NCBI GenBank assembly: GCA_944358385.1
Contig: CALVQW010000007.1
Coordinates: 1-64,000 of the forward strand
DNA: 64,000 nt
Origin: an uncultured Clostridia bacterium
GTDB taxonomy: Bacteria; Bacillota; Clostridia; Christensenellales; CAG-917
Direction: 5' to 3'
Shown here: piece by piece, positions 4,947-60,849 of the stretch
Numbering within the stretch: the stretch's first letter is position 1
Layout: each line of letters starts with the position of its first letter
Translations under genes and position numbers: made by a program
The notes under the pieces: generated by a model
The model's input: only the letters and a program-made list of their open reading frames with translations
The model's database searches: none
Told to the model about the DNA's origin: nothing

Positions 4947-5588
4947 ATTTACTAAAAACAAACTGTACGTCTCGCGGGGGAGTTAGAATCCCCCTCCTTC
5001 CCTTCGGGCTTTCCTCCCCCGTGCCGATTAGACTTCTCTCCTCGCATCTTGCGGGACTGACTTCACATCTCTACAAAAGTTTATTTCTCGCACTCACATA
5101 ACCAAGCGGATGACTGCACTCACTGAATACCCGGCACGGGCGGAGGAATTCGGCACTCGGGCACGAGTTCTACCACTACTTAGTTGTACATTAGCCCTCG
5201 GCACTCAAATAGTCGCCGCCCTGCGGCTCCGGTTTCGTCTCCGAATGAGAGAACGTCGTGCTCAAAGACGCTCTGTCAAAGTATACGTCGCAAGTGTAAT
5301 CCCCCCTGCCGCCCCGTGGCGGCACCGCTTGAAACAAGCCGGAGTTATACCTCGCATTTATTTTGTCAAGGAGTTGCGCCGAAAAATTTTGCCTACTATG
5401 CAGGCGAAATTTTTCGCGCCCTTGACAACGACGTCAAGTTAAAATCAAAACACGCGCGGAGCGGTCTCCCGCCCCGCGCCTTAATTACTTTATAACCCGC
5501 CGAACACCGTTCGGAGGACTATTTCCCCGCCTACACCTCGGCGGGGTGCCGCTCTTTTGTTCAAGCGCGCCCGCTCTAAACTTATTCA
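4947..5588 (-). repeat. Composite intergenic repeat, copy A
   Basis: Non-coding stretch without a credible gene. Read on the minus strand it contains, in order: a GC-rich hairpin with a T-rich tail (5435-5480), a 66-bp imperfect palindrome (5363-5428), one tandem-type unit (about 5225-5300), and a module near 4973-5220 that matches 54285-54600 of copy C closely, including GTTATGTGAGTGCG and the purine-rich run after GGCACGGGGGAGG. The end facing thiN runs into the thiN terminator element. Copies B, C and D lie at 45.3-46.35, 54.0-55.1 and 59.8-60.85 kb. Confidence 0.8.
5363..5428. repeat. TTGTCAAGG...CCTTGACAA palindrome, copy A
   Basis: Imperfect inverted repeat of 66 bp. The arms begin TTGTCAAGG and end CCTTGACAA, with inner AT-rich arms (GCGCCGAAAAATTTTGC / GCGAAATTTTTCGCGC). 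The same structure occurs at 45659-45725 and 60160-60226 with compensating differences. Confidence 0.8.
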
Positions 5589-5713
5589 CTGAACGCCGCC
5601 ATTTTGCGTCAGACAAGGAAGATGCCCTGCCGCGGGTGCGTGGCGTACTTTCCGTACGTGAGCAATCGCGGCAGGGCGTCTGACGCAGTATCACACAAAA
5701 TGGCGACGTTCAG
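5589..5713 (-). terminator. Long CGTAC-loop hairpin element E1 (125 bp) beyond thiT
   Basis: Nested palindrome. The outer arms, CTGAACG...CATTTTG and CAAAATGG...CGTTCAG, differ at one position in 18. Next come GCGTCAGAC/GTCTGACGC arms, then GCCCTGCCGCG/CGCGGCAGGGC, and finally an apical CGTAC-tttcc-GTACG stem. It lies downstream of the minus-strand thiT gene, beyond a simple terminator. Related long elements are at 22363, 35511 and 55191. Confidence 0.7.
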
Positions 5714-19899: not shown

Positions 19900-20140
19900 G
19901 CCGGGCGAGACAAGAGCAACAGTCAGCCGTCCGCTCAGGACCCTCACGCTCCCTGTGGGGGAATTATTCCCCCACGCCCCCACACTAATGCGGGACGTAA
20001 ATAAAATGCTGTTGCGCGTGAAGTGACACCACAGCCAGCCGTGCGCTAGCACCCCACACCCCCACACTATTGCGGGACGTAAATAAAATGCTGTTGCGCG
20101 TTAAGTGACACCACAGCCAGCCGTCCGCTCAGCACCCGAG
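19900..20140. repeat. 83-bp tandem repeat beside the amidohydrolase gene
   Basis: Two nearly identical 83-bp units begin with CCCCCACACTA(A/T)TGCGGG at 19976 and 20059. They share GACGTAAATAAAATGCTGTT and AGTGACACCACAGCCAGCCGT split across the unit. A partial unit precedes them. The last unit runs into the stop codon of the amidohydrolase gene. Confidence 0.85.
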
Positions 20141-45208: not shown

Positions 45209-45607
45209 AGGGAAAAGCCCTCCTTTCAATCTTTCAAGCGGCAAAATTTAGCCTTTCTTTGGGAAGCGAAACAGCCAAAAGCACCGGCTTTAAATTTTCA
45301 AGCGGCGGGGAATGCAGCCTTCCTTTTGTACGCAAAAGGAAGCGAAAACGGCAAGGGGCTGTTTTCCGAACGGGGTCCCCGCCGAAAAAAGTTTCGGCGG
45401 GGTATTTCCGCCCCTGCACCCGAAAACTCCTCATACCCCCACAAGGAACATATTAAGCTATAAGCACCGTTCGCCCCCTTGTCTAAGGGGGCCGTCAGCA
45501 AGAGGATAAATTAGATAATCGGGGACGAGAGCATACAAAAGAGCTAGTATTGACAAAAGATACGGCAAAACGCGCAAGTGCAAAGGGAGAATCATTTTGT
45601 AATTAAG

Positions 45608-45646
45608 GCGGACGGCAAGAAGTGCCGTCCGCAGTTTTTATATTTT
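45608..45646 (+). terminator. Internal terminator of repeat copy B
   Basis: GCGGACGGCA-agaag-TGCCGTCCGC followed by AGTTTTTATATTTT. The same hairpin, with a conserved position, is in copy D. Confidence 0.75.
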
Positions 45647-45658
45647 AACTTGACGGCG

Positions 45659-45725
45659 TTGTCAAGGGCGCGAAAAATTTTGCCGGCTCTGCCGTGCAAA
45701 TTTTTTCGACGCAACTCCTTGACAA
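45659..45725. repeat. TTGTCAAGG...CCTTGACAA palindrome, copy B
   Basis: 67-bp imperfect inverted repeat with GCGCGAAAAATTTTGC / GCAAATTTTTTCGACGC inner arms. Confidence 0.8.
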
Positions 45726-45794
45726 AAAGAGGGTTGAAGTGCAACTTCTGCCGGTGTAGAGCTGTCCCTTATTGGGTGGGCGGGCGGGGTGCAC

Positions 45795-45940
45795 TAGTGA
45801 CGTACACCCTGACAGAGCGTATTCGAGTACGACGCACACTCATTCGGAGACAATTTAATGCACACTCATTCGGAGATATTTAACGTACACTTTGATAGAG
45901 TGTGCTTGAACACAACGTCTCTTTTTCGGAGACGGAACTA
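45795..45940 (+). repeat. Tandem units in copy B
   Basis: Two to three degenerate units of the about 57-bp type, each with ACG(C/T)ACAC... followed by GAACAC(A/G)ACGTCTC and TTTCGGAGACG. Confidence 0.7.
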
Positions 45941-46351
45941 CGCGCCGCAAAGCCAAACTTTCACCGCGGGCGTTTTGCGCCCGCGCTTGAAAGTCGCGGC
46001 GCGAAACTGCGACCTCGCAAGCTAGACGGAAAATTAAGTAGAGACGTTGCTCGTGCGCGTCGAGTCGCCCTCCTCGCCCCACGAGCGACGCTCACTCAAT
46101 ACCGGCATCCGCTTAGTTATGTGAGTGCGATTACCAAAATTTTGGTAAAGTACAATAGTTAGTACCGCATTTTAGGAGGAGGGAACTCTATTCCGAGTGG
46201 GGGAGGAGTCCCGTAGGGGAGGTGGGGGACAATAACTCCCCTGTCAGAGGACGTCAGCCCGTTTTACACTCTCCGAGCACGACGTACCCACCGAGCGAGC
46301 GTCCCCGAACACGACCTACACTCCCCCGCGAGACGCACAGCCGGTTTTAAT

Positions 46352-53997: not shown

Positions 53998-54002
53998 ACG
54001 AC

Positions 54003-54008
54003 AGTATA
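54003..54008 (-). promoter_or_regulatory. Candidate -10 box of murB (leaderless)
   Basis: TATACT on the minus strand, 5 nt from the ATG. The -35 match is weak. Confidence 0.35.
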
Positions 54009-55093
54009 TGCACCCCGCCCGAAGTGTACATCGCGTACGGGTGAATTAACGCACAGCCTGTACGTGTGAGTTTGAACACGACGGATTCGGGAAAATTAAC
54101 GTGCACTGTGATAGTGCGTGCCTGAACCCGACGTGTACTCTTTCGGAGACGGTCTAACGCACACTCCGAGCGAGCGTATTTGAGCACGACGTCTCTCTTT
54201 CGGAGAAATTTAACGTACACTTCGAGCGAGGGTTGCTTGAACACGACGTCTCTCTTTCGGAGACGGATTCGGAGCCGCAGGGCGGCGACTATCTGAGTGC
54301 CGAGCGCAGACGTATACCTAAGTAGTGGTAGCACTCGTGCGCGAACCGAAGGTCCAGCGATTGCTGCGCCTTGCGCCAATCGCGTCGTGCCGAATTCCTC
54401 CGCCCGTGCCGGGTTTTCAGTGAGTGCAGTTATCCGCTTAGTTATGTGAGTGCGCGAAATAAACTTTTGTGGAGATGTACAGTCAGTCCCGCAAGATGCG
54501 AGGAGTGGACTTCAATCGGCACGGGGGAGGAAAGCCCGAAGGGAAGGAGGGGGTATCTAACTCCCCTGTCAGAGGACGTCACCCGTTCTACACTCTCCGA
54601 GTACGACGCACACTCTGTGCGGGTGCATTTGAGAACGATGTCTCTCTTTCGGAGACGGTCTAACGCACACTCTGTGCGGGCGTATTTGAGCACGATGTCC
54701 CTCTTTCGGAGACGGAACCACGCGCCGCAAAGCCAAACTTTCACCGCGGGCGTCTTGCGCCCGCGCTTGAAAGTCGCGGCGCGAATCTGCGACCTCGCAA
54801 GCTGGACGGGAAATTAAGTAGAGACGTCGCTTGTGCGCGTCGAGTCGCCCTCCTCGCCCCACGAGCGACGCTCAACCGGTACCGGTATCCGCTTAGTTAT
54901 GTGAGTGCGATTACCAAAATTTTTGGTAAAATTCAAAAGTTAGTCCCGCATTTTGGGAGGAGGGTACTCTATTCCGAGTGGGGGAGGAGTCCCGTAGGGG
55001 AGGTGGGGGACAATAACTCCCCTGTCAGAGGACGTTGGCTTATTTTACACTCTCCGAGTACGACGCACACTCCGAGCGTGCGTGTTAAAAACG
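54009..55093 (+). repeat. Composite intergenic repeat, copy C (about 1.08 kb)
   Basis: Gene-free. In order: four about 57-bp tandem units (54033-54290); a module like copy A (54285-54600) with AGCCGCAGGGCGGCGACTAT and GTTATGTGAGTGCG; two more tandem units (54590-54716); the conserved module shared with B and D (54717-55060); and closing units. It runs into terminator elements E5 and E4 at the hprK end. Its layout shows that the A-type and B-type modules belong to one family. Confidence 0.85.
54033..54290 (+). repeat. About 57-bp tandem repeat in copy C
   Basis: Four consecutive units. Each has TAACG(C/T)(A/G)CAC near its start, GAGCG..GCGT, TTGA(A/G)CACGACG and CTCTTTCGGAGA near its end. The unit can form two small hairpins, one being CGTCT-CTCTTTCGG-AGACG. 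Confidence 0.8.
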
Positions 55094-55170
55094 AAAAGCC
55101 TCTGCCGAGAGGCGGAGCGTACACAGACGTACGTGAGCATCTACGGCAGGGGCTTTGACGCAGTTGTTCG
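55094..55170 (-). terminator. Long-form hairpin element E5
   Basis: AAAGCC(T)CTGCCG / CGGCAGGGGCTTT stem around GCGTACacagaCGTACGTGAGC, with GCTTTGACGCAGTTGTTCGC on its right. It lacks the outer arms of E4, which lies 20 bp further. Confidence 0.65.
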
Positions 55171-55190
55171 CTCAACGCTAAGCAAGTTCG

Positions 55191-55318
55191 CTGAACGCCG
55201 CCATTTGGATGAGCTGCGCGAAAAAGCCCCTTCCGCAAAAGGGAGCGTACTTTCTCGTACGTGACCGCATTGCGGAATGGGGCTTTGACAAAGCAGATCG
55301 CCAAATGGCGACGTTCAG
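55191..55318 (-). terminator. Long CGTAC-loop hairpin element E4 (128 bp) at the hprK stop
   Basis: The outer arms CTGAACGCCGCCATTTGG / CCAAATGGCGACGTTCAG include the hprK stop codon. Inner arms AAAAGCCCC / GGGGCTTT, TTCCGCA / TGCGGAA and apical CGTAC...GTACG. GCTTTGACAAAGCAGATCGCC marks the family flank. Confidence 0.72.
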
Positions 55319-56271
55319 TCGAAGTCGGTGTCTTCCGGCCGATTCTTCTCCATCAACCTCGACGACAACTCATCAAGGGCGTCCCTGCCCATGGAACGCA
55401 GACGGAAATTGCGGGAGGCGGCTTCGATGACGACGGCGAGATTGCGGCCGGCGGAGACGGGGACGACGATGCGCTGGAACTTGACGCCGAGGATGTCGTA
55501 GGTGAGGTCCTCATTGCCGAGGCGGTCGTAGCTTTTGTTGTCGTCCCACTGCTCCATCTCGATGACAAGGTGGATGCGCTTTTGGTTGAGGACGCCGCCC
55601 ACGCCGTACATCGCCTCGACGTCGATGAGACCGACGCCGCGCACTTCCAAAAGATTTGCGATGCGCTTGGGGGGATAGCCGTAGATCTTGTTTTTGATTC
55701 GCTTGACCTCTACAAGGTCGTCGGCGACGAGCATATGCCCGCGGTGGACGAGTTCGAGAGCGGTCTCGGATTTGCCGATGCCGCTGTCGCCGATGAGCAG
55801 GACGCCTATGCCGCTTATGTCGAGCAGTTCGCCGTGGATGGTGTCACTTGCGGCGAGCGCGGTGGTGAGATAGTGCACCACATCGCTCTCTATGGCGGAA
55901 GTGGACTCATTGCTGACAAAGAGCGGGGTGGCATATCTCTCCGCCACTCTCTCCATATCCTCCGTCACGGGATGCTTGTGGGTGACGATGACGCAGGGCA
56001 CGCCCTTGGAGAACAGCCTTTCCAGCTGGGAGAGCCTCTTTGTTTTGTCCAGCGATTCCAGATAAGCCATCTCGGCGTTGCCTAGGATCTGTATCCTATG
56101 CTCCGGGAAATACTCGTCGAAGCCCGCAAAGAGCAAACCGGGACGGTTGGTAGCCGTTGAGCGGAACACGATCTCCCCCGCGGGCGCGCACACCACTTCC
56201 AGATCGAGATCGGCGGCGAACTTTTCCGTCCCGATGGCGACTTCACTTTTTCTCACGATATCCTTGACCAT
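55315..56271 (-). CDS. hprK: HPr kinase/phosphorylase
   Basis: Phosphorylates and dephosphorylates Ser46 of HPr, controlling carbon catabolite repression. The 318-residue protein has the Walker A motif GDSGIGKSE (161-169) and the family signature EVRGVGLIDVEAMYG near 202-216. The start at 56271 has GGGAGGATAT upstream. The stop codon is part of the arm of element E4. It follows uvrC by 28 bp; the usual downstream neighbour murB is separated by 1.3 kb of repeats. Confidence 0.95.
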   Translation of the reverse strand: MVKDIVRKSEVAIGTEKFAADLDLEVVCAPAGEIVFRSTATNRPGLLFAGFDEYFPEHRIQILGNAEMAYLESLDKTKRLSQLERLFSKGVPCVIVTHKHPVTEDMERVAERYATPLFVSNESTSAIESDVVHYLTTALAASDTIHGELLDISGIGVLLIGDSGIGKSETALELVHRGHMLVADDLVEVKRIKNKIYGYPPKRIANLLEVRGVGLIDVEAMYGVGGVLNQKRIHLVIEMEQWDDNKSYDRLGNEDLTYDILGVKFQRIVVPVSAGRNLAVVIEAASRNFRLRSMGRDALDELSSRLMEKNRPEDTDFD

Positions 56272-59718: not shown

Positions 59719-60109
59719 CGCCAACCGCCCGCCATAAGGCAGAGCTAAACGCACTCTCCCGGAACGCGCCGGACTAATGTACAACGAAAACCAAATTATA
59801 TTTTAAGCGGCGAGGAATGCAGCCTTCCTTTTGTACGCAAAAGGAAGCGAAAACGCCCAGGGGGAATTTTCCGAGTATCCCCCTGGGAACCCCAAAACTC
59901 CTCATACCCCCACAAGCAATATATAAAGCAAAAAGAGCCGTTCGCCCCCTTATCTAAGGGGGCAAAAAGGGAAACGTTAGCAAGAGGATAAATGAGATGA
60001 TCGGAGACAAGCACATACGAAAAGTCAGAGTAAGTATTTACAAAAGATCAGACAAAGCGTGTAAACGTGCAAAAGAGAGTGTGTTGTGGAGAGTATTTTT
60101 GTAATTAAG

Positions 60110-60147
60110 GCGGACGGCAAAAAGTGCCGTCCGCGGTTTTAAATTTT
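60110..60147 (+). terminator. Internal terminator of repeat copy D
   Basis: GCGGACGGCA-(aaaag)-TGCCGTCCGC followed by GGTTTTAAATTTT. Confidence 0.75.
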
Positions 60148-60159
60148 AACTTGTCATTG

Positions 60160-60226
60160 TTGTCAATGGCGCGAAAAATTTTGCCGGCTCTGCCGTGTAA
60201 ATTTTTTCGACGCAACTCCTTGACAA
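60160..60226. repeat. TTGTCAA...TTGACAA palindrome, copy D
   Basis: 67-bp imperfect inverted repeat; GCGCGAAAAATTTTGC / GTAAATTTTTTCGACGC inner arms. Confidence 0.8.
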
Positions 60227-60849
60227 AAAGAGTGTAATACCGCAACTCCTGCCGTTGCAGAGATGTTCCCTTATAGGGCGGGTGGGTGGGGTACACTAGT
60301 AACGCACACTTATTCGAAGCGTCTTTGAGTACGACGTCTATCTTTCGGAGACGGTCTAACGCGCACTTTGAGCGGGCGAACCTGAGCACGATGTCTCTCT
60401 TTCGGAGACGGAACTACGCGCCGCAAAGCCAAACTTTCACCGCGGGTGCTTTGCGCCCGCGCTTGAAAGTCGCGGCGCGAATCTGCGACCTCGCAAGCTA
60501 GACGAGAAATTAAGTAGAGACGTCGCTCGTGCGCGTCGAGTCGCCCTCCTCGCCCCACGAGCGACGCTCAGCGAGTGCTGTTCGCCGCTTGAATAAGTGA
60601 GTGCGAGAGTCAAACTATTTTCAAGAGGTGTTTTCATAAAGACGCAGATTGCGCCTTTATGAAAAAGTTAGTACCGCATTTTAGGAGGAGAGAACTCTAT
60701 TCCGAGTGGGGGAGGAGTCCCGTAGGGGAGGAGGGGGACAATAACTCCCCTGTCAGAGGACGCCAGCCTGTTTTATATTCTCCGAGTACGACGCGAACTT
60801 TGAGCGTGCGCACCTGAACCCGACGTACACTCCGAGCGAGCGTATTAAA

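What the first reader, a model, noticed from the sequence alone, without database searches (positions are those of the whole stretch)
45293..46351. About 1.05-kb structured non-coding repeat in two nearly collinear copies (B and D)
Regions 45293-46351 and 59799-60849 align along almost their whole length in the same order: CTTCCTTTT/AAAAGGAAG hairpin, GCCCCCTT/AAGGGGGC hairpin, an internal terminator, a 67-bp palindrome, tandem units, a 350-bp module with a long CGCCGC/GCGGCG hairpin, and closing units. They contain no credible gene. Retention of stems despite sequence differences suggests a structured RNA or a non-autonomous mobile element rather than decay.
Basis: seen in the sequence. Interest (0 to 1): 0.75.

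Follow-up and report, generated by a model that had tools for sequence, protein, structure and literature searches.

The report
Folded, high-copy mobile intergenic repeat
The 1-kb repeat is two of more than 50 copies, in this one genome, of a gene-free DNA element that is found only in one genus of gut bacteria, has moved between the gaps separating genes, and is built around a roughly 330-base segment whose folded shape has been preserved by matching mutations.

Summary
B and D are two of five full-length copies (among the loci read) of a composite intergenic repeat. Its constant part is a ~330-bp core (window 45925-46253, 54705-55034, 60401-60762, plus diverged remnants). A covariance model of the core's 5' domain finds 53 copies in this genome and about 400 in 7 of 10 species of the genus (Candidatus Limadaptatus, Clostridia). 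It finds none in the other 3 species, and none outside the genus in samples of 297 genomes of the order and 391 of the class.

The core strand folds into a conserved structure with compensatory changes: a CGCGCCGC/GCGGCGCG hairpin and a helix that closes over ~105 nt. At hprK-murB the repeat is in one orientation in two species and in the other in two more, while a fifth has 72 bp there. So elements have been gained or lost at fixed sites. Copies favour convergent gaps and are rare in divergent ones.

Best reading: a non-autonomous, folded, mosaic mobile repeat that works like pneumococcal BOX elements or BIMEs but has an unusually long conserved core. The enzyme that moves it is unknown; a REP-type Y1 transposase co-occurs in six of seven carrier species but has its own palindromes. 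Folded ssDNA and RNA cannot be told apart from sequence.

The parts
45293..45727 (+). Module A of locus B: separate repeat family carrying several hairpins; occurs with or without the core
   Evidence: mean divergence 14.4% among five loci against 9.1% for the core
45319..45342 (+). CTTCCTTTT/AAAAGGAAG hairpin
   Evidence: sequence
45372..45405 (+). GGGGTCCCCGC...GCGGGG hairpin, a small palindrome of another family; close relatives sit inside the core of other copies
   Evidence: (q79-112 matches inside cores)
45473..45492 (+). GCCCCCTT/AAGGGGGC hairpin
45607..45637 (+). Intrinsic-terminator-like hairpin with T run inside module A
45659..45725 (+). 67-bp palindrome TTGTCAAGG...CCTTGACAA
   Evidence: other copies at 60160-60226 and 5363-5428
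45800..45924 (+). 5' flanking array of small hairpin units (..CACTCATTCGGAG.. / ..TTGAGTACGACG..), variable in number
45925..46253 (+). Conserved core of locus B (330 model columns)
45941..46003 (+). 5' hairpin of the core (CGCGCCGC...GCGGCGCG) with covarying pairs
46070..46082 (+). 5' arm of the long-range helix (CTCCTCGCCCCAC)
46197..46208 (+). 3' arm of the long-range helix (GTGGGGGAGGAG)
46254..46351 (+). 3' closing hairpin units of locus B
53998..55090 (+). Locus C: tandem units, diverged core (54381-54578), second core (54705-55034), closing units; lies between murB and hprK
54705..55034 (+). Core of locus C
   Evidence: 351.5 bits
59799..60849 (+). Locus D: full composite (module A, units, core, closing units)
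60401..60762 (+). Core of locus D, with the extra ~31-nt hairpin at column 227
4971..5488 (-). Locus A: diverged core (4971-5200) and module-A remnant with the palindrome (5363-5428)

Best explanation
This is a lineage-specific family of non-autonomous mobile repeats. It encodes no protein. Its ~330-bp core is kept in shape by selection on the fold of one strand (the strand called + in the window) and is bordered by hairpin units whose number varies. Shown here: high copy number confined to one genus; gain or loss, and both orientations, at orthologous intergenic sites; copies within a species more alike than between species; conserved pairing with compensatory changes; preference for convergent gaps. 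Inferred: the fold is what an enzyme supplied in trans recognises when it copies or excises the element, most simply as folded single-stranded DNA or as an RNA; copies landing downstream of genes survive because they do least harm; unit number and module order then change by recombination, and other small palindromes insert into its loops. The mobilising enzyme is not identified.
For: Copy number and range: core model R1 gives 53 copies in G000, 42 G005, 90 G006, 88 G009, 85 G002, 25 G004, 17 G008 and 0 in G001, G003, G007; no match outside the genus among 297 genomes of the order (125 genera) or 391 of the class (223 genera); no hit in phage or plasmid records by BLAST or in viral contigs by exact pattern. 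Mobility: the hprK-murB gap holds the repeat in one orientation in G000 and G004 and in the other in G006 and G009, with 72 bp in G005, 73 in G007 and 71 in G008; the luxS-pfkA gap is filled in G000, G006 and G009 (split across contigs in G009) and is 186 and 113 bp in G003 and G007; at another site G009 carries a core where G000 has 177 bp, while the neighbouring gap is the reverse. Concerted amplification: the nearest relative of a copy is in the same species for 87 of 100. Fold: long-range helix with CG/UA, GC/AU/GU, CG/UA and GC/CG/AU replacements, 97% of cells paired, 25 both-side changes against 8.3 in shuffles, 0 of 500 shuffles as high for pairing or covariation score, slid versions 45-72% paired; two 5'-hairpin pairs exceed every one of 60 tree-based null alignments. 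G-U outnumbers A-C 97 to 23 in the two main helices, pointing to the + strand. Placement: 37 convergent, 47 tandem, 4 divergent gaps against 9/35/8 in the window (Fisher p 0.003 for convergent, 0.056 for divergent).
Against: No transposition intermediate, target-site duplication or defined terminal repeat was found. No enzyme gene is linked to the core. Many orthologous sites are occupied in several species, so some copies could be old and only gene-converted; that list is biased because the loci were fetched for carrying repeats. The closest pair of full-length copies read differs by 2.7%, so recent jumps are not seen directly, although many contigs end inside a core, which would hide identical copies. 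The gene finder used for gene contexts is home-made. The covariation count on A2 used match columns only (long inserts removed).
Confidence: 0.72

Rival explanations
1. A multi-copy structured non-coding RNA: the core is transcribed, and its fold serves the cell (or the element itself) as RNA. Mobility is how it spread; RNA function is why the fold is kept.
For: Covariation in a long-range helix and G-U excess on one strand; extra hairpins inserted at few points, 31 of 42 long inserts at one unpaired column; the gene upstream of a core reads in the core's direction in 71 of 97 cases, so read-through would give the folded strand.
Against: No Rfam match; no clear promoter in B (best 9 of 12); no conserved terminator at the 3' end of the core; copy number of 17-90 per genome and absence from sister species argue against a housekeeping role; no transcript data.
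Confidence: 0.3
2. The core is moved by the REP-associated Y1 (HUH) transposase of the genus as folded single-stranded DNA, a much enlarged REP/REPIN system.
For: Y1_Tnp is found in six of the seven carrier species and in none of the three non-carriers; it resembles NCBIfam REP_Tyr_transpos just below the cut-off; in G006 the gene lies between two cores in inverted orientation.
Against: In the five species whose flanks were read the gene is flanked by its own GGGGACG palindromes; outside G006 the core profile finds no core within 1.5 kb. G008 carries the repeat without a detectable Y1 gene, and the six Y1 carriers form one clade, so the correlation is a single event. No consistent link to GC skew: 21 copies on the G-rich and 16 on the C-rich strand.
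Confidence: 0.15
3. A cis-acting site (terminator, mRNA 3'-end stabiliser or chromosome-structure site) kept by selection at useful places.
For: Preference for gene 3' ends; terminator-like hairpins, 8 found against 2.5 in shuffles.
Against: Sites are not conserved: close species are empty or inverted at the same gap; three species of the genus do without it; the hprK-murB cluster is split by it in G000, G004, G006 and G009.
Confidence: 0.08
4. An ORF-less group II intron, an omega-RNA (TnpB type), or an IS110 bridge-RNA remnant.
For: Size and folded nature only.
Against: Reverse transcriptase only in G006; no TnpB/Cas12f-type zinc domain and no IS110 DEDD transposase in any of the ten genomes; no Rfam intron or HEARO match.
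Confidence: 0.03

Closest known systems
BOX elements of Streptococcus pneumoniae (PMC3049150)
   Same: Composite modules with a variable tandem array; high copy; intergenic; over-represented between convergent genes; predicted fold; mobiliser only inferred.
   Different: The conserved core here is ~330 bp and holds a long-range helix with compensatory changes; a second, independent module (A) is often attached; no terminal inverted repeats found.
BIMEs/REPs and REPINs with RAYT transposases (PMC2817692, PMC3116915, PMC8266576)
   Same: Palindromic, intergenic, many copies, mosaic arrangement; a RAYT-like Y1 gene exists in most carrier species.
   Different: REPs are 20-40 bp palindromes and REPINs are inverted doublets of them; here the RAYT-like gene has its own GGGGACG palindromes and the core does not match them.
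MITEs
   Same: Small, non-autonomous, gene-free, high copy, folded.
   Different: No terminal inverted repeats, target-site duplication or parent transposon detected.
Large ornate RNAs (ROOL, GOLLD, OLE; PMC12286853) and HEARO/omega-RNAs
   Same: Large covarying non-coding structure.
   Different: No Rfam match; dispersed in 17-90 copies per genome; no associated protein of the TnpB type.

Membership tests
BOX/BIME-type mosaic interspersed repeat | Many dispersed intergenic copies per genome | tested here: met
   17-90 core copies in seven species
BOX/BIME-type mosaic interspersed repeat | Composite of modules with variable number of internal units | tested here: met
BOX/BIME-type mosaic interspersed repeat | Sequence relationship to BOX (boxA/B/C) or E. 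coli BIME | not tested
   no direct comparison made; no match in phage and plasmid records
REP/REPIN mobilised by a RAYT | Cognate REP flanks the RAYT gene | tested here: not met
   the gene is flanked by GGGGACG palindromes; core nearby only in G006
REP/REPIN mobilised by a RAYT | RAYT present wherever the repeat is | tested here: inconclusive
   6 of 7 carriers; not found in G008, a draft of about 100 contigs
MITE | Terminal inverted repeats and target-site duplication | tested here: inconclusive
   none seen in the sites read; flank-against-flank comparison no better than random pairing; element ends are not sharply defined
MITE | Variable presence at orthologous sites | tested here: met
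Structured non-coding RNA class | Covarying base pairs beyond relatedness | tested here: met
Structured non-coding RNA class | Transcribed | not testable with these tools
   no RNA data
Known Rfam family (including HEARO, ROOL, GOLLD, group II intron) | Score above the gathering threshold | tested here: not met
   0 matches in the window and in ten loci from other species; only chance-level hits at relaxed threshold

The most novel reading that the evidence does not exclude
The core is a transposable structured RNA or ssDNA of a new kind: its own ~330-nt fold, with a long-range helix, is the substrate or guide of an undescribed mobilisation machinery that works on an element several times larger than a REP and without terminal repeats.
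Probability: 0.2. Interest if true: 0.85.

Novelty: new variant of a known kind. Interest (0 to 1): 0.6.

Why it matters
Bacterial repeats with long, covarying folds are normally taken either as RNA genes or as spreading palindromes. This family has both a conserved fold and clear signs of movement in closely related species, so it makes the question 'what is the fold for?' directly testable. It fills much of the intergenic DNA at dozens of places in a gut genus, breaks genome assemblies, and splits a gene pair that is otherwise closely spaced (hprK-murB).

Tried and rejected
Phage and plasmid BLAST and viral-contig pattern searches: nothing. Flank-specific inverted repeats as sign of a closing stem: self-pairing no better than random pairing. 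Replication-strand bias: none overall. Group II intron, TnpB omega-RNA and IS110 bridge RNA: the needed proteins are missing. RAYT as mobiliser of the core: kept as a weak rival because its own palindromes differ; GGGGACG motifs are dense near cores in G005 but not in G000, so co-location in the same gaps explains this better.

Full report
WHAT WAS CHECKED. Copies B and D are present as described and align over 1.03 kb at 75% identity. All named hairpins, the internal terminator-like hairpin and the 67-bp palindrome are at matching places in both. Neither contains a coding-like ORF.

HOW MANY. The description 'two copies' is far too low. BLAST gives 78 matches in the same genome. A profile and then a covariance model of the core's 5' domain give 53 copies in the genome of the window, and 42, 90, 88, 85, 25 and 17 in six other species of the genus; the three remaining species have none. 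Outside the genus nothing was found in 297 sampled genomes of the order and 391 of the class (these used stricter filters that lose weak matches). The named records hit by an exact pattern are uncultured Clostridia and Candidatus Limadaptatus stercoripullorum; the genus name appears in a chicken-gut genome paper (PMC8035907, found, not opened here). The window itself carries four loci, at about 4971-5500 (-), 45293-46351 (+), 53998-55090 (+) and 59799-60849 (+).

ANATOMY. The constant part is a core of about 330 columns. It is preceded and followed by short hairpin units that vary in number. Module A, the first ~435 bp of copy B, is a separate family that also occurs alone and is less conserved than the core in the same loci (14.4% against 9.1% divergence). 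Small palindromes of other families, including GGGGTCCCCGC...GCGGGG, are inserted into the core at a few places; 31 of 42 long inserts are at one unpaired column, nearly all of them the same ~31-nt hairpin.

FOLD. On 100 aligned copies, two pairs of the 5' hairpin exceed every one of 60 alignments simulated on the tree without structure. A second helix pairs columns 145-163 with 269-285, about 105 nt apart in the model. On 17 diverse copies 97% of its cells and those of an inner helix pair, with 25 both-side changes (shuffles 8.3), 0 of 500 shuffles as high in pairing or covariation score, and 45-72% when the partner is slid; the number of pairs with both-side changes is not unusual by itself (71 of 500 shuffles). 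Two subfamilies use different sequences for the same helix. G-U pairs outnumber A-C pairs 97 to 23 in the two main helices, so the + strand is probably the folded one (the structure was predicted on that strand, which favours it somewhat). This cannot separate RNA from single-stranded DNA.

MOVEMENT. The region pfk2-luxS-pfkA-dnaE-murB-hprK was fetched from all ten species. Between hprK and murB, G000 and G004 have the repeat in one orientation, G006 and G009 in the other, and G005, G007 and G008 have 71-73 bp. Between luxS and pfkA, G000, G006 and G009 are filled and G003 and G007 have 186 and 113 bp; G004 has a core downstream of pfkA at a contig end. A further pair of gaps is filled in G009 and empty in G000, and the reverse. 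The tree from these genes puts G005 inside the carrier clade with weak support, and G008 as sister to the non-carrier G001, so loss or transfer must have happened. Copies cluster by species: the nearest relative is in the same species for 87 of 100. No target-site duplication and no flank-specific stem was found.

PLACEMENT. Of 88 copies with both neighbours read, 37 lie in convergent, 47 in tandem and 4 in divergent gaps, against 9/35/8 for neighbouring genes in the window (p 0.003 and 0.056). The same preference for convergent gaps is reported for BOX, RUP and SPRITE in pneumococcus and is read there as a sign of tolerated parasites (PMC3049150). There is no overall link to GC skew.

ENZYME. 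A Y1 transposase resembling REP-associated tyrosine transposases (just under the NCBIfam cut-off) is present in six of the seven carrier species and in no non-carrier. It is, however, flanked by its own GGGGACG palindromes in each of the five species whose flanks were read, as expected of a RAYT with its own REPs (PMC3116915; PMC8266576); the six carriers of the gene form one clade, and G008 lacks it. It remains a weak candidate. TnpB-type and IS110 proteins are absent and a reverse transcriptase is found only in G006.

VERDICT. This is a genus-specific, non-autonomous mosaic mobile repeat with an unusually long structure-conserved core. It works like BOX elements and BIMEs; membership in either by descent was not tested. 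The mobiliser, the exact ends and the question of RNA against ssDNA are open.

Noticed in passing
window 19970-20137: An 82-bp unit in two tandem copies at 94% identity, apparently another intergenic repeat; a similar sequence is nested inside the 67-bp palindrome of L056 and L058.
   Followed up: partly
window 55090-55320 and 5585-5690: Long nested palindromes at gene ends (loops with GTACGTGAGC, arms with CGCCATTT), a further palindromic family; similar ones in G006 and G009.
   Followed up: no
L280 633-1400 (-), G000:C8: RAYT-like Y1 transposase beside a conserved neighbouring gene, flanked by AACAATTGGGGACGGGGCAAA palindromes; the palindrome differs in sequence from species to species around a constant GGGGACG.
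   Followed up: partly
L092, L095, L096 and other G005 loci: Inverted GGGGACGGGG pairs about 100 bp apart (REPIN-like) are dense in the same gaps as the cores in G005 (1.62 against 0.16 per kb) but not in G000.
   Followed up: partly
G000:C3 and G005:C1: All nine core hits read on G000:C3 and eight of nine on G005:C1 are on the minus strand, although no overall link with GC skew holds.
   Followed up: partly
window 53998-55314: The repeat splits the hprK-murB pair, which is only 71-73 bp apart in G005, G007 and G008, and terminator-like hairpins lie in the enlarged gap.
   Followed up: partly
L266, L273: luxS, next to pfkA in other species of the genus, was not found in the syntenic stretch of G001 and G008.
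   Followed up: no
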